The notes under the pieces were generated by a model, which saw nothing but the letters and a program-made list of their open reading frames with translations, did not search any database and was not told the DNA's origin. The position numbers and the translations under genes were made by a program. Below are positions 15,579-45,776 of a DNA stretch of 50,647 bases, piece after piece. The stretch comes from Novosphingobium sp. 17-62-19 (GTDB lineage: Bacteria > Pseudomonadota > Alphaproteobacteria > Sphingomonadales > Sphingomonadaceae): contig NZ_NCII01000009.1 in NCBI RefSeq assembly GCF_002256775.1, positions 1 through 50,647 on the forward strand, in the 5' to 3' direction. Within the stretch, counting starts at the first letter, position 1, and each line of letters begins with the position of its first letter.

Positions 15579-16754
15579 ATGAGGTGGTTTGCGTTTGCTC
15601 TGGCCCTTTCGTCTTCAAGTGCTGCCGTGCTTGCGGCTCCTGCTGTCAAGACACCATTTCCGGTGGCCTTGCCCGACGAAGCCATTCCCGCTGTCGAAAA
15701 GTTGCCCGCACAGTGGCCGGCGGACTGGGTGCTGATCCACGATTTCCATTTCAGTTCTCTCCTCGATGGGCGGGTCATGCTCGTCGATACCGGCTCGGTT
15801 GAACGCCCGGTGCGGGGAATGATCCGCGCGGCGCAGTTCGCCAACATGCTTGTCTCTCCAATGCGGGGTGAAGTCCTCACCGCCGAAACATTCTACTCCC
15901 GGCTCACGCAAGGTGAACGAACGGACGTAGTTAGCATCTGGGATATGGCTACGCTCCTGCCCAAAGGTGAAATTGTGATGCCCGGCGGAAAACGCCAACA
16001 ATCAGTTACTTACCCGCAGGTGTTCCAGTTCACCAATGCTGAAAAATGGGCGTTGGTTGCAAACTTCACGCCTGCGCAGTCTGTCAGCGTGCTTGATCTT
16101 GATGCGCGCAAGGTGATTGCCGAGATTGATCTTCCGGGATGCGCGCAACTCTACCCCACTGGCGCGCGCGGGTTTTCCAGCTTCTGCGCGGATGGATCGC
16201 TGCTGAGCGTAAAACTCGGGCCGGACGGGCAGGCGGTGTCCTCGAAAACAGTCGAGAACATCCACGATATCGACAGCCAGCCCCTGTTCGGCACGCCTGC
16301 ATGGCAGGGACAGACCGCGTGGTTCGTCAGCTATCATGGCCGCATTCAGGGTTTCGATTTCTCTGGCGATGTCGGCAAGGCGCTTCCCGGTGCGTTTGAA
16401 CTCGGCACGGCTGAGGGCGCGGCCCCCGAATGGCGGCCCGGCGGGTGGCAGGTGATTGCCACCGACACAGCGGGCAAGCTCTATGTGCTGATGAGCCCCA
16501 ATGGCCGCGAAGGCAGCCACAAGGACGGCGGCACCGAAGTATGGGTGGCAGACCCTGCAACCAAGACGCGCGTGACCCGGATTGCCTTGCGCGGTGTCGC
16601 CACCGCAATCGGGCTAACCAAGGAAGCCAAACCCCAACTGATCGTCGCCCGCGCCGATGGCGAGATCGATGTCCACGATGCTGCCAGCGGGGCTTTCGTG
16701 CGCTCGCTGGGCAAGGCAGGCGGCGACAATCCCATCCTGATCACGGCGCCTTGA
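15579..16754 (+). CDS. mauB: TTQ amine dehydrogenase heavy (alpha) subunit, module 1
   Basis: 391 aa periplasmic seven-bladed propeller subunit of a methylamine/aromatic-amine dehydrogenase. A signal peptide is clear (MRWFAFALALSSSSAAVLAA). Propeller-type repeats run through the mature part, including FYSRLTQGERTDVVSIWD and KLYVLMSPNGREGSHKDGG, which match the family. Length is the family norm. The start was taken at ATG 15579 with GGA about 8 bases upstream; the in-frame ATG at 15537 lies just downstream of the -10 box. First gene of an operon with MauE, MauD, light chain and cytochrome c; MauE begins 1 base after its stop. The substrate (methylamine, aromatic or other amine) cannot be told from the heavy chain. 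Confidence 0.88.
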   Translation: MRWFAFALALSSSSAAVLAAPAVKTPFPVALPDEAIPAVEKLPAQWPADWVLIHDFHFSSLLDGRVMLVDTGSVERPVRGMIRAAQFANMLVSPMRGEVLTAETFYSRLTQGERTDVVSIWDMATLLPKGEIVMPGGKRQQSVTYPQVFQFTNAEKWALVANFTPAQSVSVLDLDARKVIAEIDLPGCAQLYPTGARGFSSFCADGSLLSVKLGPDGQAVSSKTVENIHDIDSQPLFGTPAWQGQTAWFVSYHGRIQGFDFSGDVGKALPGAFELGTAEGAAPEWRPGGWQVIATDTAGKLYVLMSPNGREGSHKDGGTEVWVADPATKTRVTRIALRGVATAIGLTKEAKPQLIVARADGEIDVHDAASGAFVRSLGKAGGDNPILITAP

Positions 16755-16755
16755 G

Positions 16756-17244
16756 ATGACGGCGCTCACACTCTTCCTGGCGCTGCTGCTGGCGGGGTCT
16801 GCCGCACACAAAGCGCTGTCGCGTGACCGGATGGTCGCGGCGGCAGCCCGGCTGACCGGGCTCTATCGCCAAGGCCAACTGGTGCTGATTGCAGCGGGAT
16901 GCCTTGAACTTGCCGCCGCCACAGCGCTCCTGATCCCCGTGCTGCGCCCCACCGGAGCGTTGATCGCTGCGGGTGTATGGCTGGGCTATGCCTTGGCCTT
17001 GCTGCGTCTACGCGGGCAAACGCTTGATTGCGGGTGCGATCTGGTGGCGCGGGAAAAGCCGGTCGGGCGAGCGCAGATTCTTCGGCCTGCGGCGCTTTCG
17101 CTGCTCGCCTTGATCCTGTCGCTTTTGCCTGCCGATCCGTCCTTCGCGCTCGATGCTCCGTTTGCCGCCGCCGCCATGCTGGCGCTCTACCTTGGCGCTT
17201 CGGAACTCCTTGCCATTCCCCATCCTCGCTGGAGGAATTCGTGA
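16756..17244 (+). CDS. mauE: MauE-family membrane protein, module 1
   Basis: 162 aa, four hydrophobic segments, of the MauE/DoxX-like family needed to make the amine dehydrogenase light chain. The family motif LDCGCD (two cysteines) is present near residue 93, after LAGSAAHKALSRDRM in the first segment. Known MauE works with MauD in transporting, folding or disulfide formation of the light subunit, which has many disulfides. It starts 1 base after the heavy chain stop and its own stop overlaps the mauD start, so translation is coupled. Confidence 0.87.
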   Translation: MTALTLFLALLLAGSAAHKALSRDRMVAAAARLTGLYRQGQLVLIAAGCLELAAATALLIPVLRPTGALIAAGVWLGYALALLRLRGQTLDCGCDLVAREKPVGRAQILRPAALSLLALILSLLPADPSFALDAPFAAAAMLALYLGASELLAIPHPRWRNS

Positions 17245-17831
17245 TGCTGACTTCGCAGATACTGTTGTGGACGGTCGTGATCGTTCAGGGACTGCTCATC
17301 GCAGCGCTCGCCCGTCAGGTCGGCATCCTGCACGAACGTATCGCCCCTGCGGGCGCGCTGACCCTGCACCAGAAGGTGGACGTGGGCGAAGTTGCCAGCC
17401 CGATGACGGTGACCACCCTCGAAGGCGCGCCAATCGAAATCGGCGGCAAGCGTGAAGGCCGCAGCCAGCTTCTTTTTTTCGCCTCTCCTGATTGCCCGAT
17501 GTGCAAATCGCTGCTCCCGGTCCTGCGCTCTGCCGCCAGTGCCGAGGCGGACTGGCTCGACGTTGTGGTGGCAGGCGATGGCTCCAAGGCTGAATACCAA
17601 CAGATGCGCCAGATGCATGGGCTGGAAACTGTGCCGCTTGTTCTGTCCGAAGCGCTGGGCCGGGCTTTCGGCGTCTCCAAGCTTCCCTATGCAGTGCTGC
17701 TCGACGAAGCAGGCCGGGTCGCCTCGCTGGGCCTGATCAACAGCCGCGAACATCTCGAAAGCCTGTTCGAAGCCAAGGAGCGTGGCGTCGCCTCGATCCA
17801 GGATTTCCTCGCTCGCAAGAAGGGAGCCTGA
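17244..17831 (+). CDS. mauD: MauD thioredoxin-like protein, module 1
   Basis: 195 aa, one N-terminal membrane anchor (ILLWTVVIVQGLLIAALARQ) and a periplasmic thioredoxin-fold domain with the redox motif CPMC in SPDCPMCKSLLP. The conserved LPYAVLLDEAG and SREHLESL blocks are those of MauD. It is presumed to act as disulfide isomerase for the light chain. Start at ATG 17244 with GGAGG upstream; the GTG immediately before it is an alternative. Overlaps the MauE stop and ends 3 bases before the light chain gene. Confidence 0.88.
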   Translation: MLTSQILLWTVVIVQGLLIAALARQVGILHERIAPAGALTLHQKVDVGEVASPMTVTTLEGAPIEIGGKREGRSQLLFFASPDCPMCKSLLPVLRSAASAEADWLDVVVAGDGSKAEYQQMRQMHGLETVPLVLSEALGRAFGVSKLPYAVLLDEAGRVASLGLINSREHLESLFEAKERGVASIQDFLARKKGA

Positions 17832-17834
17832 GCC

Positions 17835-18383
17835 ATGAGCGCATTGGATAAATGGACCGAACGCCTGACCCGCCGCGTGGCGCGCGGCACTTCCCGGCGC
17901 AGCACGTTGGCATGGCTCGGCGCTACGATCACCGGAGCGGCGGTCTTCCCTGTCCTCCCCGTTGCTCGCGCAGCCAGCGGATCACCGCATGGCGGGGGAG
18001 GGAGCCATGCTCCGATGACATCCGGCAATCCGCAGGACCCCGGCGATCAGGCAAGTTGCGATTACTGGCGTTATTGCGCAATCGATGGCTTTCTTTGCTC
18101 CTGCTGCGGCGGCTCTGTCAGCACGTGCCCACCCGGCACCGAAATGTCGCCTATCACATGGGTAGGCACCTGCACCAACCCTGCAGACAAGCGCGCTTAT
18201 GTGATCAGCTATAACGATTGCTGCGGCGTTTCCTCGTGCGGCCAGTGCCTGTGCAACCGCAACGAAGGTGACCGCCCGCAAGTGCGCCCGCAATCGAACA
18301 ACGACTACAACTGGTGCCTCGGAACCGAAAGCAGCATCTACAACTGCTCCACTGCCGTGATTATCGGCGTGGCATCGGAGTAG
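17835..18383 (+). CDS. mauA: TTQ amine dehydrogenase light (beta) subunit, module 1
   Basis: 182 aa catalytic subunit. Twin-arginine signal SRRSTLAWLGA near residue 20, as in known light chains, implying Tat export after folding. Trp109 (SPITWVGTC) and Trp160 (NDYNWCLG) are 51 residues apart, exactly the spacing of the two tryptophans crosslinked to form TTQ in Paracoccus methylamine dehydrogenase (57 and 108). Asp84 and Asp128 fall at the positions of its Asp32 and Asp76, needed for cofactor formation and catalysis. Fourteen cysteines lie in the mature part, as expected for a subunit full of disulfides. All key residues are present, so it should be active if the tryptophans are modified. No mauG is nearby. 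Confidence 0.94.
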   Translation: MSALDKWTERLTRRVARGTSRRSTLAWLGATITGAAVFPVLPVARAASGSPHGGGGSHAPMTSGNPQDPGDQASCDYWRYCAIDGFLCSCCGGSVSTCPPGTEMSPITWVGTCTNPADKRAYVISYNDCCGVSSCGQCLCNRNEGDRPQVRPQSNNDYNWCLGTESSIYNCSTAVIIGVASE

Positions 18384-18856
18384 TGAACCGGATGTTGCCT
18401 CTTGCCGCTGCTGCCGCTGCCGTTCTGGCGGCAGGCGTGGCTGCGGGAGCCAACGAAAGCATGATGCGCGGCGTGCCCGATCCGAAGCAGGCTCGCATCG
18501 ACTACATGCTCAAGTGCCAAGGCTGCCACCGCCCCGATGGCGGAGGCGACGACCGCTCAAACCCGCCGATGAAGCACGTGGTCGCGCAGTTCCTCGGCGT
18601 GCCGGGAGGACGCGAGTTCCTTGGCCGCGTGCCCGGCGTCTCGACTGTCGATCTCGATAATGTCCGACTGGCGAACCTCGTCAACTGGACCCTCTACACT
18701 TTTGATGCGGCGCACATGCCGTCTGACTTCCGGCCCTACACCCCGGAAGAGATCGGGCAATTGCGCCGCCACCCCCTGCGGCTGGAACGCGCCGATATGA
18801 GAGCGCGGCTGGTGGCAGGGTTCGCGCAGGAAAGAACAGAAACGCAAACACCCTGA
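18383..18856 (+). CDS. Monoheme c-type cytochrome, module 1
   Basis: 157 aa exported protein with one heme-binding motif CQGCH (Cys45) and a probable distal methionine in AAHMPSDFRPYT. N-terminal signal is hydrophobic and alanine-rich. It follows the light chain directly, the place where the aromatic amine dehydrogenase cluster of Alcaligenes also has a monoheme cytochrome. It may accept electrons from the dehydrogenase; with a single heme it is not MauG. The start is either GTG 18383, touching the light chain stop, or ATG 18392; GGAG lies just upstream. GTG was preferred because it gives a charged N-terminus and because the module 2 counterpart also starts with GTG. Confidence 0.82.
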   Translation: MNRMLPLAAAAAAVLAAGVAAGANESMMRGVPDPKQARIDYMLKCQGCHRPDGGGDDRSNPPMKHVVAQFLGVPGGREFLGRVPGVSTVDLDNVRLANLVNWTLYTFDAAHMPSDFRPYTPEEIGQLRRHPLRLERADMRARLVAGFAQERTETQTP

Positions 18857-18869
18857 TTGGGAGGCAATG

Positions 18870-21077
18870 ATGAGGGAACGTCTTTACCGTGGAATCGCGC
18901 TGGCAGGGGTCGCCGCCGCATCCATCTTCACCGCAGCACCGGCCTTTGCGCAGGATGCACAAGCCGAAAGCGCCTTTGCTGACGGCGAAATCGTCGTCAC
19001 CGCCACCAAGCGCGCAGAAAGTCTGCAATCGGTGCCAATCTCTGTCTCGGCCATCGGCGGCGATACTTTGGCAAAGGCACGCGTGAACAGCGTCGACAGC
19101 CTTGTCACGAAAGTCGCCAACCTCCAGTTGACCTCTATCGTCGGGGACAACACGCCGATCTTCAGCCTTCGCGGCGTGTCGATGTCGGACTACAGCCTCA
19201 ACCAATCCAGCCCGGTGGCGACTTATTACGACGAAGTCTACAAGGGCAACTTCGCTTTCCTAGGCGTTGCGATGTATGATCTGGAGCGTGTGGAAGTGCT
19301 GCGCGGCCCACAAGGCACACTCTATGGCAAGAACACCACCGGCGGTGCGGTCAACATCATTGCGGCCCCGGCCAAGCTGGGCGAAACCAGCGGCTATGCC
19401 AACGCAGGCTACGGCAACTACAACCGCATCGACCTCAACGGCGCCATCAACGTGCCATTGGGTGAGAAGGCGGCGCTGCGCATCGCGGGCACTTATGCCA
19501 AGGCCGATGGCTGGTTCAAGAACGTCATCCCCGGCAAGCCCGACCTTGCTTCGACCGATGAATACGCCATCCGCGCCACGCTGAACGTGGAAGCGAGCGA
19601 AACGGTGCGCTTCGTGCTGCGCGCCTCGACCAGTTTCCAGAACCCCTACAACTACGGCATTTATGCCCAGCCCGAAGCGACCAACCGCCCGGGCCTCGGC
19701 GAACGCGAAATCGCCTCGAACATCGACGAAAAGCGCCGCGCCCGGACCTATTCGGTCGCGCTGACCAGCACGTTCGACGTGTCTGATGCGCTCACCATCA
19801 CCAGCATCACCGCGTGGGACAAGGGCAACCTGTCGTTCTACGAAGACACCGACGGCACTGCAGGCGAACTGCTGGAAATCCCCTATCGTGACCGCGCCAC
19901 CCAGTTCTCGCAGGACCTGCGCCTCACCAGCGACACCGGTGGGCCATTCGATTTCATCCTCGGCGCATTTTACCACCGCGAAAAGGTCTACAATCAGACC
20001 ACGTTCGAGATCGGCAAGGACATCGATTCCGATGGCCTTCCCGGCATCACGGCCAACGATTGCGCGGTGGGGCTTCCGCTGGGCTGCCTGTTCCGCAACC
20101 AGTTCGATCAGGTGAAGAACAGCTACGCGCTCTATTCCGACCTGAAGTACGACCTCACCGAAGCGCTCACCCTCCGCGGCGGTTTGCGCTTTACGCACGA
20201 TACCGGCCGCCAGACGGACTTTTCCTCCGATGCGCTGGGCGTGGATGGCACGCTGATTGCCAACCTTATCCCGATTTCGGCGCTGCGCTATTCGCAGGAT
20301 AACCTTTCAGGCAAAATCGGCCTCGATTACAAGTTGGCCGATGGCAACCTGCTCTACGCCAGCGTCAGCCGTGGCTACCGCGCACCAAGCTTCAACGCGC
20401 AGGCCTTCTTCGATCCATCGGAACTGTCCATCGCACGGCCCGAAGAAGTCACCAGCTACGAAGCTGGCGTCAAGACGCAGTTCATGGATCGCAAGATCAC
20501 GCTGAATGTCTCGGGCTTCTACTATGATTACAAGAACCAGCAGTTCATCAACGTCGACCCGACCAGCGCCGCACAGACCCTTCTCAACATCCCCAAATCG
20601 CGCATCTTCGGCGGTGAGGCTGAACTGACGATCCGCGCCAGCGACGCCTTCACGATTCACTCCGGCCTGGGACTACTCTCCACCAAGATCCAGCGCGGCA
20701 CGGTGAGCGGCAACAACGTATCGGGCAATCGCCTGTCCAATGCGCCAAGCCTCACCTTCAATACCACTGTCGACCTGACGCTGTTCGATGGTGACATGGG
20801 CAAGCTTTCACTCCACCCGGACATCGCCTACCAGTCCAGCCAGTTCTTCGAAGTGCTGAACGTGCCCCGGCTGGAGCAATCGGCCTATGCCATCGTCGGC
20901 GGCCATATCGATTGGGAAAGCGCGGACGGGCGGTTTAACGCGTCGGTCTGGGGCAAGAACCTGACCGACAAGTTCTTCTTCACCTCGCGCGTCGATCTGC
21001 TGGCCGGGTTCGGTTTTGATTACAACCACATCGGCAACCCGCGCATGTATGGCGTAAGTGTCGGCGTGAAATTCTGA
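18870..21077 (+). CDS. TonB-dependent outer membrane receptor of amine module 1
   Basis: 735 aa. Signal peptide, then a TonB box region (EIVVTATKRAESLQSVPISV), plug domain with VEVLRGPQGTLYGKNTTGGAVNI, and a beta-barrel ending in a terminal phenylalanine (VGVKF), as outer membrane proteins do. It follows the cytochrome c gene by 13 bases with GGGAGG in between, so it belongs to the amine dehydrogenase operon. That position suggests it imports the amine substrate or something the enzyme needs, such as a metal complex; the sequence does not say which. ATG 18867 is 3 bases upstream and also possible. Confidence 0.9.
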   Translation: MRERLYRGIALAGVAAASIFTAAPAFAQDAQAESAFADGEIVVTATKRAESLQSVPISVSAIGGDTLAKARVNSVDSLVTKVANLQLTSIVGDNTPIFSLRGVSMSDYSLNQSSPVATYYDEVYKGNFAFLGVAMYDLERVEVLRGPQGTLYGKNTTGGAVNIIAAPAKLGETSGYANAGYGNYNRIDLNGAINVPLGEKAALRIAGTYAKADGWFKNVIPGKPDLASTDEYAIRATLNVEASETVRFVLRASTSFQNPYNYGIYAQPEATNRPGLGEREIASNIDEKRRARTYSVALTSTFDVSDALTITSITAWDKGNLSFYEDTDGTAGELLEIPYRDRATQFSQDLRLTSDTGGPFDFILGAFYHREKVYNQTTFEIGKDIDSDGLPGITANDCAVGLPLGCLFRNQFDQVKNSYALYSDLKYDLTEALTLRGGLRFTHDTGRQTDFSSDALGVDGTLIANLIPISALRYSQDNLSGKIGLDYKLADGNLLYASVSRGYRAPSFNAQAFFDPSELSIARPEEVTSYEAGVKTQFMDRKITLNVSGFYYDYKNQQFINVDPTSAAQTLLNIPKSRIFGGEAELTIRASDAFTIHSGLGLLSTKIQRGTVSGNNVSGNRLSNAPSLTFNTTVDLTLFDGDMGKLSLHPDIAYQSSQFFEVLNVPRLEQSAYAIVGGHIDWESADGRFNASVWGKNLTDKFFFTSRVDLLAGFGFDYNHIGNPRMYGVSVGVKF

Positions 21078-21119
21078 TAACGTGAACCACAAGGCTCCTT
21101 GAAGAGCCGGGAGAGGACA

Positions 21120-22523
21120 ATGACTGACTACAAGCTGCTGATCGGCGGCCAGCTCGTCGATGGTGACATGACGATGGACGTGATCAACCCGGCCACGGGT
21201 GCGCCGTTCTGCACGGTGCCCCGTGCCAGCGCTGCGCAGGCCGATGCCGCCATTGCGGCGGCAAAGGCTGCGGTGCCGGGCTGGGCTGCGGTGCCCTGGG
21301 CAGACCGTCAGGCAAAGCTCGTCGCGCTGGCCGACGCTATCGCCGCCCGCAAGGACGAGATTGCTCGTGCGTTGACCATGGAACAGGGCAAACCGCTGGC
21401 CGAGGCCATGGGCGAACTCGCGTGGACAGATGGCTATTTGCGCCACTATGCCACGCTGGAACTGCCCGAACGGGTAATTCAGGACGACGCGGCCGGGTAT
21501 ATCGCGGTCAAGCATCGGCCGCTCGGTGTGGTTGTCGGCATCATTGCATGGAACTTCCCGCTGCTCGTCGCCTGCTGGAAGATCGGGCCTGCGGTGCTGG
21601 CGGGCAACGCCATTGTGCTGAAGCCGGCGCCAACCACTCCGGTCTGTGCGCTGATCCTGGGCGAGATCTGTCGCGAGGTGTTCCCTGCGGGCGTGGTCAA
21701 TGTCATCACCGATGCCAATGACCTTGGCCCTCATCTGACGGCCCATCCCGATGTCGCCAAGGTCGGCTTCACCGGCTCCACCGCCACCGGCAAGCGTATA
21801 GCCGCCAGCGGTGCAGACACGCTCAAGCGCGTGACGCTCGAACTCGGGGGCAATGATCCGGCCATCGTGCTCGAAGACGTCGACGTGCGCGAAACCGCGC
21901 AGGCCATCTTCGGCAATGCCTTCCTCAACAACGGGCAGGTCTGCCTTGCGATCAAGCGCGCCTATGTCCACGCCGATATCTATGACGCAATGTGTGGCGA
22001 ACTGGCGCGCCTTGCCGAAGCGGCCGTGGTCGATGACGGTCTGCAGCAGGGCACCCAGATCGGCCCGATCCAGAACGCGATGCAGTTCGAAAAGGTGAAG
22101 GGTTTCCTCGATTCCGCCCGTGCCGAAGGCACTGTGGTGGCAGGCGGCGAGGTGATGGAGCGCGCCGGATACTTCATCCGCCCCACCATCGTGCGCGATG
22201 TGACCGATGGTGATCGCATCGTGGATGAGGAGCAGTTCGGCCCGATCCTGCCGCTGATCAAGTTCGACGATGTCGAGGATGTCATCGCCCGTGCCAACGC
22301 CAGCGAATACGGTCTGGGTGGCTCGGTCTGGTCAAGGGATGTGGGCCGGGCCGCAGATATTGCCGCGCGCATTGAAAGCGGGCAAGTCTGGGTGAACCAG
22401 CATATCGCCATCGGCCCGCACATCCCTATGGCCGGTTTCAAGAACAGTGGCCTTGGCGTCGAGCAATCGGTCGAAGGCCTTGCCGAATACACGCAGACGC
22501 AAGTGGTGAATATCAAGCGATGA
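21120..22523 (+). CDS. NAD(P)-dependent aldehyde dehydrogenase, module 1
   Basis: 467 aa cytoplasmic aldehyde dehydrogenase. Catalytic Glu241 (LELGGNDPAIV) and Cys275 (NNGQVCLAIKR) are present, with GFTGSTATGKRIA for NAD(P) binding and NPATGAPF near the start. Start at ATG 21120 preceded by GGGAGAGGA. It lies 42 bases after the TonB receptor and overlaps the acyl-CoA synthetase by ATGA. In this position it should oxidise the aldehyde made by the amine dehydrogenase to an acid. Which aldehyde is unknown. It is not closely alike to the vanillin-type enzyme at 8976. Confidence 0.9.
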   Translation: MTDYKLLIGGQLVDGDMTMDVINPATGAPFCTVPRASAAQADAAIAAAKAAVPGWAAVPWADRQAKLVALADAIAARKDEIARALTMEQGKPLAEAMGELAWTDGYLRHYATLELPERVIQDDAAGYIAVKHRPLGVVVGIIAWNFPLLVACWKIGPAVLAGNAIVLKPAPTTPVCALILGEICREVFPAGVVNVITDANDLGPHLTAHPDVAKVGFTGSTATGKRIAASGADTLKRVTLELGGNDPAIVLEDVDVRETAQAIFGNAFLNNGQVCLAIKRAYVHADIYDAMCGELARLAEAAVVDDGLQQGTQIGPIQNAMQFEKVKGFLDSARAEGTVVAGGEVMERAGYFIRPTIVRDVTDGDRIVDEEQFGPILPLIKFDDVEDVIARANASEYGLGGSVWSRDVGRAADIAARIESGQVWVNQHIAIGPHIPMAGFKNSGLGVEQSVEGLAEYTQTQVVNIKR

Positions 22524-24145
22524 CGCAGCTTTCCTATGCCAAAGGCGCGGTTGACGAACCGCTGCTGGAAAAAACCATCGGACAGGCGCTGCGCGACGCC
22601 GCAGTGCTGTGGGGCGATGACTTGGCTCTCGCCTCGCGTCATCAGGGTATCCGCTGGACCTGGACTGAACTTGATGCCGAAGTGGATCGCGTTGCCAGCG
22701 GCCTGCTGGATCGTGGCGTGGCCAAAGGCGACCGTGTCGGCATCTGGGCACCAAACTGCGCGGAATGGACCGTGCTCCAATTCGCCACCGCACGCATCGG
22801 TGCAGTGCTTGTCACCATCAACCCGGCCTATCGCACCAGCGAAGTCGAATACGCGCTGAACAAGGTCGGCTGCACATTCCTTGTCACTGCCGCCCGCTTC
22901 AAGACGAGCGATTACATCGCAATGCTGCGCGAACTGGGGTCGGAAAAACTGCCGATGCTGCGCAACATCGTGGTGCTTGGCGGTGAAGCGCAGGAAGGCT
23001 TCGAGCCGTGGGAAGACCTGCGCGCACAACCCGATGCCGCACGGCTTGCGGCGGTGGACGCCACACTCGATCCCCACGATCCGATCAACATCCAGTTCAC
23101 CAGCGGCACCACCGGATTCCCGAAGGGCGCGACGCTCACCCATCGCAACATCTTGAACAACGGCCATTTCACCGCCTGCACGGTCAAGTTCACGCACAAG
23201 GACCGCATCTGCATTCCGGTCCCGCTCTACCACTGCTTCGGCATGGTATTGGGCAACCTTGCCGCGCTCGCCAGCGGTGCCGCCATGGTCTATCCGAGCG
23301 AGGCCTATGATCCCAAACTGGCGCTCGAAGCTGTGCAGGCCGAAGGCTGCACTGCGCTATATGGCGTGCCGACGATGTTCATCACCATCCTCGCCCAGCC
23401 CGATCTTGCAGACTACAACGTCAGCACGCTGCGAACCGGCATCATGGCCGGATCGCCGTGCCCGGTTTCCACGATGCAGCAGGTGATGGACCGTCTGAAC
23501 ATGACGCAGGTGACCATCGGCTACGGCATGACCGAAACCAGCCCGCTCACCACCCAGACCGCCACCGACGATCCGATCGAAGAGCGCGTTGGCACAGTCG
23601 GCCGTGTTCATCCCCATGCCGAAGCAAAAGTCGTCGGCCTGAATGGTGAAACGCTGCCCATCGGCGAACAGGGCGAATATTGCTCGCGCGGCTATGCCGT
23701 CATGCTCGGTTACTGGGACGATCCGACCAAGACCGCCGAAGCCATCGACGAAGAGGGCTGGATGCATTCGGGTGACCTCGCCACGATGGACAAGAACGGC
23801 TACATCCGCATCACCGGCCGCATCAAGGACATGATCATCCGCGGCGGCGAGAACATCTACCCGCGCGAGATCGAGGAGTTCCTGCTCACCCACCCGGCGG
23901 TGCAGGATGCGCAGGTCTTCGGTGTGGCCGACGAGAAATACGGTGAGGAAGTCTGCGCATGGCTGATCGCGCGGGCAGGGCAGGGCCTTACCGCAGATGA
24001 TGTGCTGGCCCACTGTAAAGGCCGCATCGCGCACTACAAGGTGCCGCGCCATGTGCGGATCGTCGAGGCTTTCGCGATGACCGTCACTGGCAAGGCTCAG
24101 AAGTTCGAAATGCGCAAGATGATGGAAGCTGAACTCGTGCGTTAA
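22520..24145 (+). CDS. AMP-forming acyl-CoA synthetase, module 1
   Basis: 541 aa ANL-superfamily ligase; activates a carboxylic acid to its CoA ester with ATP. P-loop FTSGTTGFPKGATLTHRN, YGMTETSPL, the hinge GRIKDMIIRGGENIYPREI, and the C-terminal catalytic lysine in VTGKAQKFEMR are all intact. It looks like a medium-chain or general fatty-acyl-CoA synthetase. The start overlaps the aldehyde dehydrogenase stop (ATGA), so the acid made by that enzyme is the obvious substrate. It might also serve the hydratase-lyase at 10424, which lacks its own ligase, but nothing in the sequence supports that beyond proximity. Last gene of the module 1 operon. Confidence 0.9.
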   Translation: MTQLSYAKGAVDEPLLEKTIGQALRDAAVLWGDDLALASRHQGIRWTWTELDAEVDRVASGLLDRGVAKGDRVGIWAPNCAEWTVLQFATARIGAVLVTINPAYRTSEVEYALNKVGCTFLVTAARFKTSDYIAMLRELGSEKLPMLRNIVVLGGEAQEGFEPWEDLRAQPDAARLAAVDATLDPHDPINIQFTSGTTGFPKGATLTHRNILNNGHFTACTVKFTHKDRICIPVPLYHCFGMVLGNLAALASGAAMVYPSEAYDPKLALEAVQAEGCTALYGVPTMFITILAQPDLADYNVSTLRTGIMAGSPCPVSTMQQVMDRLNMTQVTIGYGMTETSPLTTQTATDDPIEERVGTVGRVHPHAEAKVVGLNGETLPIGEQGEYCSRGYAVMLGYWDDPTKTAEAIDEEGWMHSGDLATMDKNGYIRITGRIKDMIIRGGENIYPREIEEFLLTHPAVQDAQVFGVADEKYGEEVCAWLIARAGQGLTADDVLAHCKGRIAHYKVPRHVRIVEAFAMTVTGKAQKFEMRKMMEAELVR

Positions 24146-37145: not shown

Positions 37146-37706
37146 CTAACGGCCTTTAATGTGTTCCAGCGCACTCTGCAGGTCTTCCAAAGTGTCGATA
37201 TCGAGCGCAAGTTCCGGCGAGAGTTCGACGGAGGGGGCATCATTCAGGAGAGCGCCGGCGCCCCTGTCTCCAACCAGCGTTTTGAGCGCTTCGAAATGCT
37301 GCTTTCCGAAGATCGCCGGAACCATGTTCCGCCCGTCAACTTGCGTGGCGATCATGCTGCCATCGAACTGCGCGATGAGCCGCGCGAAATGGTCTGTCGG
37401 GACAAGCGGCATGTCGGCGAGGGCGAAAAGCACGGCGTCTTCGTCGGTGAGTGCAGCAACGCCAGTAGCTATCGACTGCGACAGAGGTGCATCGGGTGGA
37501 TCGAGCAAGATGCGCGAAAATCTGGGTAGATCAGGTGTTTGCGTTGAACAAAGTGCGATCTTCCGGTCAAACGGGAGGGCGCTGAGGCTATCGGCTACAT
37601 GGCGGGCGAGGGGCTTTCCCGCCAGCGCGGTTCCGAGCTTGCCGCCGCCAAAGCGGGTCGCTCGTCCGGCAGCGAGCAGGATGGTTGCTATTCGCAGGTC
37701 GCTCAC
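37146..37706 (-). CDS. MobA/MocA-like nucleotidyltransferase for molybdenum cofactor
   Basis: 186 aa. N-terminal nucleotide-binding motif ILLAAGRATRFGGGK and FALADMPLVPTDHFARL are those of MocA-type molybdopterin cytidylyltransferases, which finish the cofactor used by xanthine oxidase-family enzymes. The start is a GTG at 37706 overlapping the XdhC stop (GTGA), so the two are coupled. Last gene of a minus-strand operon iron-sulfur subunit, molybdenum subunit, XdhC, MocA; together they make and load the enzyme at 38691-41368. Confidence 0.85.
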   Translation of the reverse strand: MSDLRIATILLAAGRATRFGGGKLGTALAGKPLARHVADSLSALPFDRKIALCSTQTPDLPRFSRILLDPPDAPLSQSIATGVAALTDEDAVLFALADMPLVPTDHFARLIAQFDGSMIATQVDGRNMVPAIFGKQHFEALKTLVGDRGAGALLNDAPSVELSPELALDIDTLEDLQSALEHIKGR

Positions 37707-38690: not shown

Positions 38691-40849
38691 CTATACCACC
38701 TCCAGCGGCAGACGGCGATGCCGTTTTCCGGTCAGAGAGTAGATTGCGTTGGCCAGCGCGGGAATTACCGGGGGCAGGGCAGGCTCGCCAAGTCCCGTGG
38801 GCGGGAAATCGGTCTTCACGAATTCGACGGCAATTTCACGCGGGGCTGCGTCAATCCGCATGAGTGCGAAATCGCCGAAGTTGTCAGCGGTGATGGCGCC
38901 TGCTTCCTGAACGATCTTCTGGCCGACCATGGCTTGGCCCAGCCCTTCTATCACGCAACCGTGGGCCTGATTCATGGCATTGAGCGGATTGATGACATGT
39001 GCGCCGATGTCTCCGGCGACCCAGACCTTGTCCACCTTCAACGCACCATCGGCCATCGAGATATCGACGACTTCCGCGAAATATCCCAAGTGGCTGAAAT
39101 AGAACCCGAAGCCGCGGCCTTTCTCACGCCCCTTCCAGCCCGCGGTCTTGCACACGGCGTCAATCACGCCGCGCGCGCGGCCCGTATGGAACTTGGCCCG
39201 TTCGCCCGGAATTTCGCGCGGTTCGCCCAAAGTGCGGCGCATCAGTTCGGGCAGGTCCAGCCCCGCGGCTTCGGCCACTTCATCGAGGAAGGACTGGAAC
39301 ACGAAGGCCATGGCATTGGAAGACGGTGCGCGCAGCCAGCCAGTGGCGAGGTTGGTGGCCATATAGCTGACGCCAAGATCGACATTGGGCACGACGGGCG
39401 CGGGATATTCGCCGGGGGACATTTGCGCGGCGCGCACAGGCTTTCCATCTGCACCGAACGTGGCGAAGTGATCTTTCAGGGCAACCAGCGCGCCGTCCGC
39501 GCCAAGCCCTGCGGTGAGGCGATGCCAGCCTGCGGGGCGATAGAAATCGTGGCGGAAATCGTCGGTCCGGTCGAACAGAACCTTGACCGGTTTGCCCGGC
39601 ATGGCCTTGGCCACTTGCCCGGCGATCACCATGTAATCATTGAGCAATCTGCGCCCAAAGCCGCCGCCGATGCGGGTGAGGTGAATGGTCAGATCATCAG
39701 GTGTGAGGCCGCAGAACTTGGCGGTTTCGGCGCGACCACCGGCGGGCGCCTGACTGGGCGCCCAAAGCTCCAGCTTGCCATCCTTGAACAGTCCGGTGCA
39801 GTTCTGCGGCTCTAGCGAGGCGTGGGCGAGGAAGGGGTATTCGTAGTCGGCCGTGACGACTTTTGCCGCCTTGGCCAGTGCGGCATCAGGATCACCGGCC
39901 TTGAACACGCTGGTCTGCGGCGTGCCTGCAATGAGCTTTGCAGCATCGATTTCATATTTGGCAGTGGAGAAGCTGGTGACGGCGGTATCGTCCCATTTTA
40001 CGGCCAGCTTTTCACGTGCCTTGCTGGCCTTCCACCAACTGTCAGCAACGATTACCAGCGTGTCCGCCTTGCCTTCAGGCACGAAGCCGCTGTTGACGGC
40101 GACGACGCCCAGCACGCCTGGTATTGCCTTGACCCCGGCATCATCGAACGACGCGACTGTGCCGCCGTGGGCAGGGCATTTCACCACCGCGCCGTGGACC
40201 ATGCCGGGCACGCGGGTGTCGATGCCAAAGAGCGGTTCGCCCTTGACGATCTTTGGCACATCGACGCCGGGTTTGGACGTGCCGATGATCTTGAAGGCGG
40301 CCGGGTCTTTCAGTGTTACCTTGGCGAGATCGGGCGGCGTTTGGGCGGCGGCATCTTTTGCCAGCGATGCAAAAGTGGCAGTCTTGCCCGACGAGGTCTG
40401 GACTACTGTGCCGCTGGCGGTGGAGAGCGTGGCGGGATCTACGCCCCACTTTTTGGCAGCGGCCATGACCAGCATTTCGCGCGCGGCCGCGCCAACCTGC
40501 CGCATGGGAATCCAGTTGCGCGGGGTGGCGCTGCTGCCGCCTGCGACTTGCGGGCCATAGAGCTTTTCGTCTGCATCGGTCTGTTCGATGCGCACCTGTT
40601 CCCATGCAAGGTCCATTTCCTCGGCGATGAGCATGGGCAGCATGACCTTGACGCCCTGACCGATTTCCGGGTTCTTCGCGCCGATGGTCACGGTGTTGTC
40701 GGCATTGATGCGGACGAAGGCGTTGAGCACATCGGCAGGTGCCGTGGCGCTGGCAGCGGCGAGGACAACGGAAGCATCGAGCGTGAGCACCGCGCCGCCT
40801 GCCATCGAGGCGACGAGGAACGAGCGGCGCGAGAGGGCGACTGTTTGGG

Positions 40850-40853
<4 letters not shown>
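38691..40853 (-). CDS. Molybdenum-binding large subunit of a periplasmic aldehyde oxidoreductase (IorB-like)
   Basis: 720 aa xanthine oxidase-family subunit of the two-subunit type (isoquinoline 1-oxidoreductase or aldehyde dehydrogenase). The twin-arginine signal [14 protein letters not shown] shows Tat export. The catalytic glutamate lies in [14 protein letters not shown] near the C-terminus, and the cofactor-binding IGGGFGRR is present. There is no FAD subunit, so electrons would go to a periplasmic or membrane acceptor. It overlaps the iron-sulfur subunit gene by ATGA. It is divergent from amine module 2, so the natural reading is oxidation of the aldehyde made there, but the substrate is inferred. 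Confidence 0.9.
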
Positions 40854-41368
<515 letters not shown>

Positions 41369-41438
41369 CGTATTGATTCCTTGGGATATGCCGCTTCGGT
41401 CGAACAAGCGCGCCGATAGCAGGCCCGCATCGTGCGCG

Positions 41439-41559: not shown

Positions 41560-42240
41560 ATGGCCGCTCGCCCCGACCCTGCCGACACGGAATTGCCGTC
41601 TTCACCGCGCCCCGGAACCTATGCGCGTGGAACCGAAACGGTCGATGCGATCATCAAGGCCGCGCTGCGGGTGTTGATCGACGAGGGATCAGGCGCGTTC
41701 ACCATTCGCCGGATTGCCGCCGAATGCGGGATGAAAGTGGGGAATGTCAGCTACCACTTCCCCAAGAAGGAACTGCTGATCCAGACACTGCTGGACGATA
41801 TCATCGGCAGCTATGACAAATTGCTGGAACGCACCGTGCGCCAGCCGGGGCTTGATGCCGAAGAGCGGCTGCGGCTGATCGTGGTGATGTGCCTTGATGA
41901 CATTGCTGGCAAGCGGACCACGCGGCTGTTCCCTGAACTGTGGGCACTGGCCAATCACAACGAGTTTGTGGCGGACCGGGTGCGGGTGTTCTACCAGCGC
42001 GTGCATGATTTTATCTCGGACTATGTGGCGCAGCTGAACCCGGCGTTGAGCCATCAGGAAGTGCGTGATGTGGCCCTGTTCATCAGTGCATCGATGGAGG
42101 GGGCAACGCCGTTCCTGGGTTATGAAAAGCCTTGGGCAGCGCGGATGCCGGCGTTCACCGCGATTGCCGCGCATGGCTTGGTGCATATTGCCAAGACGAT
42201 CACTTCGGCGCAGATTGCAGGTCTGGACGCGCGACAGTAG
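41560..42240 (+). CDS. TetR-family regulator of amine module 2
   Basis: 226 aa from ATG 41560. HTH with AALRVLIDEGSGAFTIRRIA and AECGMKVGNVSYHFPKKELL; ligand domain with TRLFPELWALANHNEF and ALFISASMEGATPFLGYEKP, matching the TetR of module 1 throughout. It lies between the divergent aldehyde oxidoreductase operon and the amine dehydrogenase genes, 116 bases upstream of the heavy chain, so it can control both sides. An in-frame TTG at 41461 would add 33 residues with a hydrophobic stretch, but TetR proteins do not usually have one; the chosen start has only a weak ribosome-binding site. Confidence 0.85.
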   Translation: MAARPDPADTELPSSPRPGTYARGTETVDAIIKAALRVLIDEGSGAFTIRRIAAECGMKVGNVSYHFPKKELLIQTLLDDIIGSYDKLLERTVRQPGLDAEERLRLIVVMCLDDIAGKRTTRLFPELWALANHNEFVADRVRVFYQRVHDFISDYVAQLNPALSHQEVRDVALFISASMEGATPFLGYEKPWAARMPAFTAIAAHGLVHIAKTITSAQIAGLDARQ

Positions 42241-42281
42241 GTCGCTGCCGGGCACTTTTCTTTCGCAACTGCAACAAGGCG

Positions 42282-42308: not shown

Positions 42309-42356
42309 CCTTGGGCCTGCGAGGTATTTCGTTGCGAGGTTTTCAGGGGGGCCGCG

Positions 42357-43535
42357 ATGAAGCGTATGGGCAGGCTGGCACGAGTTGCTATCGGTGCGGT
42401 GACTATGGGGGCGATGGGCATGGGAGCGTTCGGCGCTCCGGTTGTGGCCGAAAACATCGTACCCGAGGCTGAAGAGGCCACTGTAAACACCATCGATCCG
42501 CCCAAGCTGGGGTGGTTCTATGTGCGGGGCGGATGGGGCTCTGCGGGATCGAGCATCTTCGATGCGGGCACCGGCAAGATGCTGGGCATGGTATCGACCA
42601 GCCGCGATTCCGATCTTGCCATCGATCCTGCGGGCAAGTTCTATTACGTGGCCGAAACGATGTGGACCAAGGTCAACCGTGGAACGCGGATGGACTTCAT
42701 CTCGATCTATGACAGCAAAACGCTGAAGCTGGTGACGGAAATCCCCACGCCGGGGCGGCTGATCGTGGGTGGGTTCACCACAAATTTCGTGCTGAGCGAC
42801 GATGGCAAGACGGCCTACGATTACAACTTCGATCCGGCGTCTTCGGTCAACGTGATCGATATGGCCAAGCGCAAGTTCGTGCGGGCGATCGAACTGCCGG
42901 GCTGTGCGAGCCTGATCCCCAACGAGGGGGTTGGCTTTTCCGCGCTTTGTGCCGATGGCACGCTGGCGACGGTGGCGGTGAAGGGGGCGACGCAGGAGAT
43001 TACGCGGTCTGCCGAGTTCTTCGATGCGGCGGCGGACCCGATCTATTCCAACGTGGTGTTCGACCGCAAAAAGAACATGGCGGTGCTGCTGAGCTATACC
43101 GGGCTGGTGCGCACGGTGGCGATGGGCGCGGCTCCGGTGGTGAGCGCGCCGTTCTCCATCCAGGAAGCGGGCGGGATGCGGGCGGCGGACGTGAAGCCGC
43201 TGGACATCGCGTGGTATCCGGGCGGGATGCAGCCGACTGCACTGCACCGGCCAAGTGGCACACTGTGGGTGCTGATGCACAAGGGTGAATACTGGAGCCA
43301 CAAGGAAGGCGCCGAGGAAATCTGGGGCCTCGATCTGGCGACGAAGAAGCTGGTCAAGCGCATCCCGGTGAGGGGCCATCCGCGCAATATCGAGATTACG
43401 CAGGACGATGCCGCGATGATCATGGTCAACGGAATGGACAACAATGCCATGATCATCGATTCCAAGACAGGCGAAGTGAAGCACGAGATCGAGAACGCGG
43501 GCGGCGGACTGATTACGGTGGTTGAGCCGAAGTGA
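42357..43535 (+). CDS. mauB: TTQ amine dehydrogenase heavy (alpha) subunit, module 2
   Basis: 392 aa exported propeller subunit. Signal peptide (RLARVAIGAVTMGAMGMGAF, cleavage near VVA-EN). The family blocks are clear: MLGMVSTSRDSDLAIDPAGK, TMWTKVNRGTRMDFISIYD, LWVLMHKGEYWSHKEGAEEI. It is distinctly different from the module 1 heavy chain, so the two modules are old paralogues rather than a recent copy. Start at ATG 42357 with AGGGGGG upstream. First gene of the second dehydrogenase operon; the MauE start overlaps its stop (GTGA). Confidence 0.9.
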   Translation: MKRMGRLARVAIGAVTMGAMGMGAFGAPVVAENIVPEAEEATVNTIDPPKLGWFYVRGGWGSAGSSIFDAGTGKMLGMVSTSRDSDLAIDPAGKFYYVAETMWTKVNRGTRMDFISIYDSKTLKLVTEIPTPGRLIVGGFTTNFVLSDDGKTAYDYNFDPASSVNVIDMAKRKFVRAIELPGCASLIPNEGVGFSALCADGTLATVAVKGATQEITRSAEFFDAAADPIYSNVVFDRKKNMAVLLSYTGLVRTVAMGAAPVVSAPFSIQEAGGMRAADVKPLDIAWYPGGMQPTALHRPSGTLWVLMHKGEYWSHKEGAEEIWGLDLATKKLVKRIPVRGHPRNIEITQDDAAMIMVNGMDNNAMIIDSKTGEVKHEIENAGGGLITVVEPK

Positions 43536-44080
43536 GCGGGGCTTTCGACACGGCTTTGGCGATCTGCGGTGGTGTTGCCGCCGTGGGGAACGGGCTGGTG
43601 TTTCTGACCGCTGGCTTTGCCAAGCTGCGCAGCCGCCGGGTGTTTCCGGGTGTGGTGGCAAACTATCGGTTGTTGCCCGAAGCGCTGGTTGGGCCAGTAG
43701 CAGCCGTTCTGCCCTTGGCCGAGGTGCTGATCGGTGCGGCGTTGCTGGGCGGCGTTGCCTTGGCGGCGGTGCCTGCTGCGGCGTTGCTGCTGGCTTTTGC
43801 TGCGGCGATGGCGGTGAATATCGGGCGGGGGCGGGCGCATATCGATTGCGGTTGCGGGCGTTCTGAACTGCGCCAGCCGTTGAGCCGGACGCTCGTGGTG
43901 CGCAATCTCGTGCTGGCGGGACTGCTGGTTCCTGCGATGTTTGCGGTGCCGGTGTTCGGCTCGGTCGAGTGGGGCTTTGCCCTTGCGGGCGGACTGGCGC
44001 TCTATCTTCTGACTTTGCTGGTGAATGCACTGTCCGCGCTGGCGGCAGGGCCGCTGGCCGTTGAAAGGAATTCACGATGA
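43532..44080 (+). CDS. mauE: MauE-family membrane protein, module 2
   Basis: 182 aa, several membrane segments, with the family motif HIDCGCG and LTAGFAKLRSRRVFPGVVANY in the first part. Needed with MauD for making the light chain in known systems. Starts with GTG overlapping the heavy chain stop and ends with TGA overlapping the MauD start, so the three are translationally coupled. Slightly longer than its module 1 counterpart. Confidence 0.87.
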   Translation: MSGAFDTALAICGGVAAVGNGLVFLTAGFAKLRSRRVFPGVVANYRLLPEALVGPVAAVLPLAEVLIGAALLGGVALAAVPAAALLLAFAAAMAVNIGRGRAHIDCGCGRSELRQPLSRTLVVRNLVLAGLLVPAMFAVPVFGSVEWGFALAGGLALYLLTLLVNALSALAAGPLAVERNSR

Positions 44081-44682: not shown

Positions 44683-44707
44683 GCGGGACGAACGAAGGGG
44701 GCATTTG

Positions 44708-45250
44708 ATGATCAAGTTCAATCCCGATGCAACTGGCGAGAAGCTGCTGCGGCGGTTGGCCGGGGGCACTTCACGCCGGGGGATTCTTTCACGGCTTGGC
44801 GCGGCGCTGGTGGCGGCTCCGGTCTTTCCGCTGCTGCCGGTGAGCCGGGCAGAGGCTGCCAAGCCTGACCGTTCGCCCGAGGCGAAAACCGCGTTTGCGC
44901 GCTCTGCGCAGACCAAGGACGACACCAAGTGCGACTATTGGCGCTATTGCGCGATTGATGGGTCGCTCTGCACGTGCTGCGGTGGCGGGATGCATACTTG
45001 CCCGGCAGGGTCTGAACCATCGCCCGTTTCGTGGGTGGGTTCGTGCATCAACCCGGATGACGGCAAGGCCTATATGATTGCCTACCGCGATTGCTGCGGC
45101 AAGCCGACCTGCGGCCAGTGCGGTTGCGACAACATCGACCGTGAAACGCAGCTATACCTGCCACAACTCAACAACAACATCATCTGGTGCTTCGGGACGA
45201 GCAGTATGGAATACCACTGTTCCACCGCCATGATGATCGGGGCTGCGTGA
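44708..45250 (+). CDS. mauA: TTQ amine dehydrogenase light (beta) subunit, module 2
   Basis: 180 aa. Twin-arginine signal TSRRGILSRLGAAL. Trp109 (SPVSWVGSC) and Trp160 (NNIIWCFG) sit at the same residue numbers as in module 1 and keep the 51-residue spacing needed for TTQ; Asp84 and Asp128 are also conserved. The cysteine pattern (CDYWRYCAIDGSLCTCCGGG onward) is complete. NNIIWCFG is closer to the Paracoccus methylamine dehydrogenase form than the module 1 NDYNWCLG, so substrate or reactivity may differ. Start at ATG 44708 with AAGGGGG upstream. Confidence 0.94.
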   Translation: MIKFNPDATGEKLLRRLAGGTSRRGILSRLGAALVAAPVFPLLPVSRAEAAKPDRSPEAKTAFARSAQTKDDTKCDYWRYCAIDGSLCTCCGGGMHTCPAGSEPSPVSWVGSCINPDDGKAYMIAYRDCCGKPTCGQCGCDNIDRETQLYLPQLNNNIIWCFGTSSMEYHCSTAMMIGAA

Positions 45251-45260
45251 GAGGTTGGCG

Positions 45261-45776
45261 GTGAGGGCACTGGTCCTGGCGGCAGTAGCCCTTGTTCTGG
45301 CACCGCAACTGGCGGCGCGGGACGATCCGCGCAGTGCAACGGTGGCGCGAGGCCTTGCCGCACTGAGTGACCCGGAACTGGCGCGGGGCGATTATGTGGA
45401 GCACTGCGCCGGGTGTCACGGGGTGCAGGGGATCTCTGCCCCGGCAAAACTGCCCGAACTGCGCGGGCGGGTAGGCTACATGATGTGTACCGCCGATACC
45501 CGCGCCTATCTGCTGCGGCTGCCCAACATTGCCAAAAGCCGGATCAGCGACAATCAGCAACTGGCAGACATGCTGAATTTCATGGTCTTTGGTCTGGGTG
45601 GGGACAGCGTGATCCCCGGCACGCAGCCGTTCACCGCACAGGAAGTGGAATACGAACGCCGGTTCGCGCTGACCTCTGCGTCGCTGGTGGCAGAGCGAAA
45701 GCGCCATGTTGAAACGGCCATTCGTAAATGCGGTGCGCCGGAAGCTTTTCGGGACTTCTACCGAACGCGCGGGTGA
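45261..45776 (+). CDS. Monoheme c-type cytochrome, module 2
   Basis: 171 aa, short signal peptide (LVLAAVALVLAPQLAA), one heme motif CAGCHG and methionines in RVGYMMCTAD and LNFMVFGLGGD as possible sixth ligands. A cysteine pair outside the heme site (YMMC and RKCG) may form a disulfide. It takes the same place after the light chain as in module 1 but the two cytochromes differ a great deal. Probable electron acceptor; only one heme, so not MauG. Starts with GTG 45261 with GAGAGG upstream, 10 bases after the light chain stop. Last gene of the operon. Confidence 0.82.
   Translation: MRALVLAAVALVLAPQLAARDDPRSATVARGLAALSDPELARGDYVEHCAGCHGVQGISAPAKLPELRGRVGYMMCTADTRAYLLRLPNIAKSRISDNQQLADMLNFMVFGLGGDSVIPGTQPFTAQEVEYERRFALTSASLVAERKRHVETAIRKCGAPEAFRDFYRTRG

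What the first reader, a model, noticed from the sequence alone, without database searches (positions are those of the whole stretch)
15579..45776. Two complete paralogous TTQ amine dehydrogenase modules within 30 kb
Each module has heavy chain, MauE, MauD, light chain and a monoheme cytochrome c in the same order, and each has its own TetR regulator of the same subfamily. In both light chains the TTQ tryptophans are at 109 and 160 and the catalytic aspartates at 84 and 128. The heavy chains and cytochromes differ a great deal, so this is an old duplication with probable division of substrates. Most bacteria known to have this enzyme carry one cluster.
Basis: partly seen in the sequence, partly recalled or inferred. 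Interest (0 to 1): 0.8.

Follow-up and report, generated by a model that had tools for sequence, protein, structure and literature searches.

The report
Two old-diverged TTQ amine dehydrogenase operons
A Novosphingobium-group bacterium carries two different enzymes for breaking down amines that both need a self-made quinone cofactor, and each comes with a small heme protein that may take the place of the usual cofactor-building enzyme, which was not found in this genome.

Summary
Both modules (H-E-D-L-cytochrome, each with a BetI-type TetR) are intact, with W109/W160 and D84/D128 in both light chains. The interpretation needs correcting: the modules are not sister paralogues. On joined H+L+D alignments an exclusive M1+M2 clade is rejected (p-AU 0.0016) and M2 is sister to methylamine dehydrogenase; heavy or light chain alone does not decide. 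Module 1 goes with aldehyde dehydrogenase + acyl-CoA ligase, module 2 with a molybdenum hydroxylase. No MauG-family protein was found in the 95%-complete genome. The main find is the cytochrome: a family (cB) that has lost the loop with the usual heme-ligand methionine. It lies beside 67 of 67 light chains in 53 genomes; genomes without a light chain have no strong match (0 of 36, 0 of 385); at 159 loci it excludes MauG. I propose, unproven, that cB finishes TTQ in place of MauG; the main rival is a dedicated electron acceptor. Two or more clusters are common in this genus (9 of 16 carriers sampled).

The parts
14723..15457 (-). TetR1, BetI-type regulator, divergent from module 1
   Evidence: Pfam TetR_N + PF13977; 47% identical to TetR2; found at 53 of 66 M1-type loci
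15579..16754 (+). H1, TTQ amine dehydrogenase heavy chain
   Evidence: PF06433 152 bits; best PDB match AADH 2hkm, 8.2e-50
16756..17244 (+). E1, MauE-like membrane protein
   Evidence: PF07291 40.6 bits
17244..17831 (+). D1, MauD thioredoxin-like
   Evidence: TIGR02661 175.7 bits, under cut-off 188.6; CPMC motif
17835..18383 (+). L1, TTQ light chain, W109/W160, D84/D128
   Evidence: PF02975 167 bits; residues; best PDB match MADH 3c75 (2.6e-48), then AADH 2agl (1.2e-44)
18380..18856 (+). cB1, monoheme cytochrome c without the Met-ligand loop (start 18380 GTG or 18392 ATG)
   Evidence: 1:1 with light chains
18867..21077 (+). TonB-dependent receptor of module 1
   Evidence: Pfam; 39 of 66 M1-type loci
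21099..22523 (+). NAD-type aldehyde dehydrogenase of module 1
   Evidence: PF00171; 41 of 66 M1-type loci, 0 of 16 M2
22520..24145 (+). AMP-forming acyl-CoA ligase of module 1
   Evidence: PF00501; 40 of 66 M1-type loci, 0 of 16 M2
38691..40853 (-). molybdenum hydroxylase large subunit, twin-arginine-like N-terminus (by eye)
   Evidence: PF02738, PF20256; 7 of 16 M2 loci, 0 of 66 M1
40850..41407 (-). 2Fe-2S small subunit of the molybdenum hydroxylase
   Evidence: PF01799, PF00111; 7 of 16 M2 loci, 0 of 66 M1
37146..38680 (-). MobA-like and XdhC-like maturation proteins
   Evidence: XdhC: NF045664 70 bits, under cut-off 350; MobA-like named from recall; both 9 of 16 M2 loci, 0 of 66 M1
41560..42240 (+). 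TetR2, BetI-type regulator of module 2
   Evidence: 14 of 16 M2 loci
42357..43535 (+). H2, TTQ heavy chain
   Evidence: PF06433 127 bits; PDB matches AADH 1.3e-35 and MADH 9.3e-34 nearly alike
43532..44080 (+). E2, MauE
   Evidence: PF07291 81.7 bits
44077..44682 (+). D2, MauD
   Evidence: TIGR02661 170 bits, under cut-off
44708..45250 (+). L2, TTQ light chain, W109/W160, D84/D128, Ile159 as in MADH
   Evidence: PF02975 176 bits; best PDB match MADH 3c75 (3.3e-51), then AADH (7.9e-40)
45255..45776 (+). cB2, monoheme cytochrome c without the Met-ligand loop
47137..49617 (+). TonB-dependent receptor downstream of module 2
   Evidence: Pfam; only 3 of 16 M2 loci

Best explanation
Two periplasmic TTQ amine dehydrogenases of old, separate lineages. 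SHOWN by sequence: complete H/L pairs with the TTQ and catalytic residues; MauE/MauD, known to serve light-chain folding; no MauG in either module; one cB cytochrome per enzyme, without the loop that carries the distal Met in its relatives. INFERRED: each oxidises primary amines to aldehyde + ammonia. Module 1 feeds an NAD-linked aldehyde dehydrogenase and an acyl-CoA ligase (carbon use of an alkyl or aralkyl amine); module 2 feeds a probably exported molybdenum aldehyde oxidoreductase. PROPOSED: cB, with an open or weakly held sixth heme site, takes peroxide (or O2) and completes the Trp109-Trp160 quinone of its own enzyme, the step done by MauG in methylamine dehydrogenase; Met-ligated cA, where present, or a general cytochrome carries catalytic electrons. 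Two TTQ enzymes: about 0.95; split by aldehyde fate: about 0.6; cB as maturase: about 0.35.
For: Residues and families. No PF03150 in own genome nor in 29 of 44 carriers of the light chain, own genome included (26 of 40 at least 90% complete); PF03150 does recognise 5 of 5 MauG proteins; Paracoccus MauG as query finds nothing in 7 two-copy genomes (no positive control of its own). Of 159 light-chain loci (redundant; about 109 held with 8 kb on both sides), 154 have cB and no MauG within 8 kb or the locus end, 5 have MauG and no cB; 152 of the 154 score 100 bits or more, the other two are cut by the locus end. cB is 1:1 with light chains: 56 of 56 and 11 of 11, starts 398-1025 bp apart. No strong match in 36 non-carriers of the order (best 41.8 bits) or 385 of the phylum sample (best 43.7). 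In joint alignment cA has Met in 31/31; 46 of 46 cB rows lack the 18 columns before it and have G (40) or N (6) in the Met column; the profile match to Thermus c552 skips the same stretch. MADH locus L218 has MauG but no amicyanin, and still no cB (one case). Neighbour sets. Trees.
Against: No experiment. MauG uses two hemes, cB has one. Co-occurrence and dedicated pairing fit an electron acceptor as well; both window modules lack cA, so cB is the only cytochrome encoded in them. Loss of Met does not prove an open site: another residue may bind. The genome is 94.9% complete in 149 contigs, so a MauG could lie in a gap, though 25 other carriers at least 90% complete also lack it. 15 of 44 carriers do have some PF03150 protein, as do 6 of 9 further carriers of the phylum sample. 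Only 5 MauG loci, all alphaproteobacterial plasmids, were seen. A3, the cB profile, was built partly from the genomes searched.
Confidence: 0.4

Rival explanations
1. cB is the dedicated electron acceptor (or third subunit) of each enzyme, with another sixth ligand, and TTQ forms by itself or by an unlinked factor.
For: One cB per enzyme, always adjacent in the 67 cases paired; no cA was found in 17 of 17 M2 loci or in window M1. It takes the operon place that amicyanin has in MADH.
Against: 36 of 41 M1 loci in the tree keep a separate normal Met-type cytochrome cA besides cB; over all, cA is in 64 of 107 thinned loci, so cA, not cB, is the dispensable one. MauG-type locus L218 lacks amicyanin yet has no cB.
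Confidence: 0.38
2. The two modules are sister paralogues from one duplication of a cluster in an ancestor of this lineage.
For: Same gene order, same TetR family, both lacking cA; heavy-alone and light-alone AU tests do not reject it (p 0.167, 0.159).
Against: Joined H+L+D rejects it (p 0.019, 0.0016); M2+MADH has support 99; residue 159; in the rows seen M1 ranges over the order, some Caulobacteraceae and some Gammaproteobacteria, M2 only over the family.
Confidence: 0.08
3. Both are methylamine dehydrogenases used for methylamine.
For: Automatic names in relatives; both light chains have MADH 3c75 as best PDB match; M2 is sister to MADH and its light chain scores near the MADH cut-off (188.9 of 196.85).
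Against: All four chains miss the NCBIfam MADH cut-offs, heavy chains by far (151 and 138 of 454); no mauF, mauJ or amicyanin at the loci and no mauG; Novosphingobium sp. KN65.2 with a mauBEDA operon does not grow on methylamine (PMC8292978, passage; clade of that operon not known).
Confidence: 0.06
4. A MauG-like enzyme lies in a gap of the assembly, or another heme protein elsewhere in the genome makes the TTQ, and cB is incidental.
For: Genome 94.9% complete; 15 of 44 carriers have a PF03150 protein.
Against: 29 of 44 carriers have none; cB pairing is exact.
Confidence: 0.15

Closest known systems
Aromatic amine dehydrogenase (aau) cluster of Alcaligenes faecalis, PDB 2agl and others
   Same: Order B-E-D-A followed by a monoheme cytochrome and no mauF/G/L/M/N (aau cluster recalled, not from a call); TTQ and catalytic residues; best PDB match of H1
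   Different: Neither module falls in the AADH-like clade with 2agl and the P. aeruginosa aau loci; Ser in place of Thr at 172 in both
Methylamine dehydrogenase (mauFBEDACJGMN), loci L148, L155, L218, L221, L222
   Same: M2 is its sister and shares Ile159; same B-E-D-A core
   Different: No mauF, mauJ, mauG, amicyanin; cB instead; below NCBIfam cut-offs
MauG, diheme TTQ-forming enzyme
   Same: Proposed role only: heme protein in the operon of a TTQ enzyme
   Different: cB is a single-heme protein with a cytochrome c fold, pLDDT 91, nearest Thermus c552 (TM about 0.6); no PF03150 match among 80 cB proteins
Thermus thermophilus cytochrome c552 (1c52, 1dt1)
   Same: Fold and sequence segments on both sides of the Met loop
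   Different: The Met loop is deleted in cB (that Met69 is the ligand is recalled)

Membership tests
TTQ amine dehydrogenase family (broad) | light chain with the two TTQ Trp, catalytic Asp and Cys-rich fold, paired with a beta-propeller heavy chain | tested here: met
TTQ amine dehydrogenase family (broad) | actual Trp-Trp crosslink and quinone | not testable with these tools
   needs mass spectrometry
Methylamine dehydrogenase | NCBIfam equivalog cut-offs TIGR02658, TIGR02659 | tested here: not met
   H 151 and 138 of 454; L 173.6 and 188.9 of 196.85
Methylamine dehydrogenase | mauF, mauJ, mauG and amicyanin in the cluster | tested here: not met
   MauF and MauJ only in the 5 MADH loci; amicyanin in 4 of those 5; MauG only in those 5
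Methylamine dehydrogenase | common clade | tested here: inconclusive
   M2 sister to MADH with support 99, not inside it; M1 not
Aromatic amine dehydrogenase | common clade with A. faecalis AADH | tested here: not met
   the 10 AADH-like rows are one clade (98) without M1 or M2
Aromatic amine dehydrogenase | activity on aralkylamines | not testable with these tools
   needs enzyme assay
MauG / CCP family (for cB) | PF03150 domain, two hemes | tested here: not met
   80 cB proteins match, at E up to 0.01, only PF00034 (72) or PF13442 (29); one CxxCH in both window cytochromes
Class I cytochrome c (for cB) | CxxCH and cytochrome c fold | tested here: met
   the PF00034 match of cB1 is under the curated cut-off (18.3 of 21.3)
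Class I cytochrome c (for cB) | distal Met ligand | tested here: not met
   no invariant Met; loop absent in 46 of 46 cB rows aligned with cA

The most novel reading that the evidence does not exclude
TTQ is normally made without MauG: a single-heme cytochrome, cB, derived from an electron-transfer cytochrome by deletion of its Met-ligand loop, is the general TTQ maturase, one per enzyme, and MauG is a later replacement confined to methylamine dehydrogenase, which arose from an M2-like, cB-using ancestor. In the phylum sample all 14 convincing light chains were of the cB type. The root of the tree was not determined, so the direction is a guess.
Probability: 0.3. Interest if true: 0.85.

Novelty: new variant of a known kind. 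Interest (0 to 1): 0.6.

Why it matters
How TTQ is formed in enzymes whose clusters lack mauG has been open since the aau cluster was described (recalled). This work gives a single small candidate gene, found beside 67 of 67 such light chains in the genomes searched, with a structural reason (missing Met loop) to suspect chemistry rather than plain electron transfer, and a genome with two such enzymes in which each cB could be deleted and swapped. In the phylum sample all 14 convincing light chains were of this kind, so the textbook MauG route may be the minority branch.

Tried and rejected
Single-gene trees: neither heavy nor light alone settles M1 versus M2; only joined alignments do. The MADH branch is long; adding three more MADH rows strengthened rather than weakened the result. 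My first count of downstream cytochromes missed several through its distance limits and was redone. The cA count is inflated by cross-matches and is not used. Literature: no paper on cB or MauG-free TTQ formation appeared in the listings (one search listed 40 of 55 papers); these cover open-licence PMC only, the key aau paper was not looked up, and two reviews are not held. PMC3608174: passages and part of Table 1 seen; Saro_1685 'amine dehydrogenase' is a processed periplasmic protein, but which chain or clade it is I could not tell, and no crosslink is reported in what I saw. PMC5023228: passages seen, not used. Substrate-pocket residues of the heavy chain (the AADH/MADH Phe gate) were considered but not assigned, the numbering being only recalled.

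Limits of the counts. In one search, M1-type loci not in a tree (rows) were counted as M1 because they were fetched as relatives of L1; some loci end before the neighbour genes, so those counts are lower bounds. One search covered 36 of the order sample's 352 PF02975-negative genomes; 4 of the 36 (G333, G377, G030, G053) have weak matches of 32.5-41.8 bits, that of G030 covering positions 14-121 of 138. In one search, taken to be the same sample as, 387 genomes are not among the 11 carriers; G649 and G678, whose PF02975 matches are fragments or hold stops (24.5 and 22.0 bits), have no match and were set aside, leaving 385, of which G053, G464, G564 and G724 have weak partial matches of 37.3-43.7 bits. 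One search scored only the ten best candidates per genome.
Full report
WHAT IS THERE. The window is a whole 50,647-base contig (G000:C148) of a 3.8 Mb, 94.9%-complete genome; the best named relative of its L1 is a Novosphingobium MAG at 97% identity. Module 1 is TetR1 (-) / H1-E1-D1-L1-cB1, followed by a TonB receptor, an aldehyde dehydrogenase and an acyl-CoA ligase. Module 2 is TetR2-H2-E2-D2-L2-cB2 (+), next to a molybdenum hydroxylase with XdhC and a MobA-like protein. Within 106 light chains aligned they are invariant or nearly so: W109 106/106, W160 and D128 105/105 with one row truncated, D84 103/106. Another genome, G336, keeps both modules in the same order and orientation 25.6 kb apart, with most of the genes between.

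HOW COMMON. In an even sample of 396 Sphingomonadales genomes 44 have the light chain; ten of the 44 have two or three copies. Within the genus 16 of the genomes sampled carry it and nine of the 16 have two or more. In an even sample of 398 genomes of the phylum 13 have a match; two of these are fragments near or below the cut-off. So multiple clusters are not rare here.

NOT SISTERS. Heavy-chain tree, 82 rows: M1, M2, a third clade seen on plasmid pNL2 of N. aromaticivorans, MADH and AADH-like rows are separate. An exclusive M1+M2 clade is not rejected by the heavy chain (p-AU 0.167) or the light chain (0.159) alone. With H, L and D joined it is rejected: p 0.019 with 61 rows and 2 MADH, p 0.0016 with 66 rows and 5 MADH. 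M2 groups with MADH at SH-aLRT 99. Light-chain residue 159 fits: Ile in M2 (17/17) and MADH (2/2), Asn in M1 (62 of 64 with a residue) and AADH-like rows (8/8). Best single PDB matches do not separate them: both light chains score best against MADH 3c75, L1 by a small margin over AADH, and both heavy chains score best against AADH, H2 barely. Caveats: quick trees without bootstrap, M1 thinned to 20 rows in the joined trees, a long MADH branch, an undetermined root.

DIVISION OF LABOUR. M1-type loci (66 besides the window, partly cut by contig ends) carry TetR 53, TonB receptor 39, aldehyde dehydrogenase 41, ligase 40, molybdenum hydroxylase 0. M2 loci (16 besides the window) carry TetR 14, molybdenum hydroxylase large and small subunits 7 each, XdhC and MobA 9 each, aldehyde dehydrogenase or ligase 0 (at least 60% coverage, at least 40% identity for the large families). 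So the aldehydes probably go different ways. Upstream of module 1 the window also has a p-hydroxycinnamoyl-CoA hydratase/lyase (439.5 bits, cut-off 276) and an aldehyde dehydrogenase, but these are not part of the conserved M1 set (7 and 3 of 66, several of the former weak).

NO MAUG. All five MADH loci have MauG, MauF and MauJ; four of the five have amicyanin. No MauF or MauJ was found in the other loci held. PF03150, which recognises the five MauG proteins, has no match in the window's genome nor in 29 of 44 light-chain carriers of the order, the window's genome included; of 9 carriers from the rest of the phylum sample 3 have none (G644, G452, G580). Paracoccus MauG itself finds nothing in seven two-copy genomes (that call has no positive control of its own).

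THE CYTOCHROME. Two families lie downstream of the light chain. cA (often CAACH or CSACH, about 150 aa) has Met at one column in 31 of 31 rows aligned. cB (mostly CQGCH in M1-type loci, CAGCH or CGGCH in M2; both window cytochromes) lacks the 18 columns before it in 46 of 46 rows and has G (40) or N (6) in the Met column. cA is in 36 of 41 M1 rows of the tree, 0 of 17 M2 and 7 of 24 others. The cB profile matches Thermus c552 in two stretches that skip the same region. In 80 cB proteins C25, G27, C28, H29, P41, N81 and R120 are the invariant columns. The AlphaFold model of cB1 is confident (mean pLDDT 91.4) and has a cytochrome c fold, nearest Thermus c552 at TM about 0.6, though Foldseek E-values are weak, best 0.0057. 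Heme is not modelled, so the sixth ligand is unknown.

ONE cB PER ENZYME. Of 159 light-chain loci (redundant, some loci counted from two collections), 154 have cB and no MauG within 8 kb or the locus end, and 5 have MauG and no cB; 152 of the 154 score 100 bits or more and two are cut by the end of the locus. By whole-genome search 44 of 44 carriers of the order have a strong cB (127.8 bits or more) and 0 of 36 non-carriers (best 41.8; four weak matches). In the phylum sample 11 of 11 carriers do (108 bits or more) and 0 of 385 others (best 43.7; four weak matches). The pairing is exact, 56 of 56 and 11 of 11 light chains, with starts 398-1025 bp apart. Part of these sequences built the profile, so their own matches are by construction; the lack of strong matches elsewhere is not.

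READING. cB accompanies the TTQ enzymes that have no MauG beside them, and it has lost the ligand usual in electron-carrying class I cytochromes. MauG forms TTQ by reacting a five-coordinate heme with peroxide, the second heme storing an oxidising equivalent (passages of PMC6405878; on the prehydroxylated substrate, passages of PMC7876137). I therefore propose cB as the finishing enzyme, at about 0.35. The rival, a dedicated acceptor, is about as likely on present evidence: it explains pairing equally, and in both window modules no cA is left. One case speaks for the first: L218 has MauG but no amicyanin, and no cB.

KNOWN BEFORE. That the aau cluster of Alcaligenes lacks mauG and has a monoheme cytochrome gene is recalled from its published description, not from a call. 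Novosphingobium sp. KN65.2 has a mauBEDA operon but does not grow on methylamine (passage of PMC8292978). A processed periplasmic 'amine dehydrogenase', Saro_1685, was seen in N. aromaticivorans (PMC3608174, part of Table 1). I found no mention of the Met-less cytochrome family in the search listings named under Tried and rejected.

Noticed in passing
32758-37117 and 4284-6754: Two similar pairs of hybrid histidine kinase plus LuxR-type response regulator in one window; the first kinase has about 640 extra N-terminal residues, which look like a multi-helix membrane part by eye, with no Pfam match there.
   Followed up: partly
L104, 9731 and 15606: A proteobacterial MAG contig with two TTQ modules of different clades (one M1-type, one near the pNL2 type) on opposite strands 6 kb apart: a second case of paired, non-sister modules.
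   Followed up: partly
L150 (pNL2 of N. aromaticivorans DSM 12444), 5714-9013: A third TTQ clade in Novosphingobium, beside beta-ketoadipate pathway genes and an amidase; its downstream 'hypothetical protein' is a cB cytochrome.
   Followed up: partly
10424-11275 and 8976-10376: p-Hydroxycinnamoyl-CoA hydratase/lyase (over its NCBIfam cut-off) and an aldehyde dehydrogenase upstream of module 1, suggesting hydroxycinnamate catabolism nearby.
   Followed up: partly
45255-45776: M2-type cB proteins have two extra Cys shared across the M2 rows of alignment A2, perhaps a disulfide.
   Followed up: no
L154 (Sphaerotilus sulfidivorans plasmid), 7929-8474: A light-chain reading frame without a heavy chain nearby but with cytochrome genes next to it, one of them cB-like at 123 bits; perhaps a remnant.
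   Followed up: partly
28424-29992: TPR-sulfotransferase protein between the modules, also present between the modules in G336.
   Followed up: no
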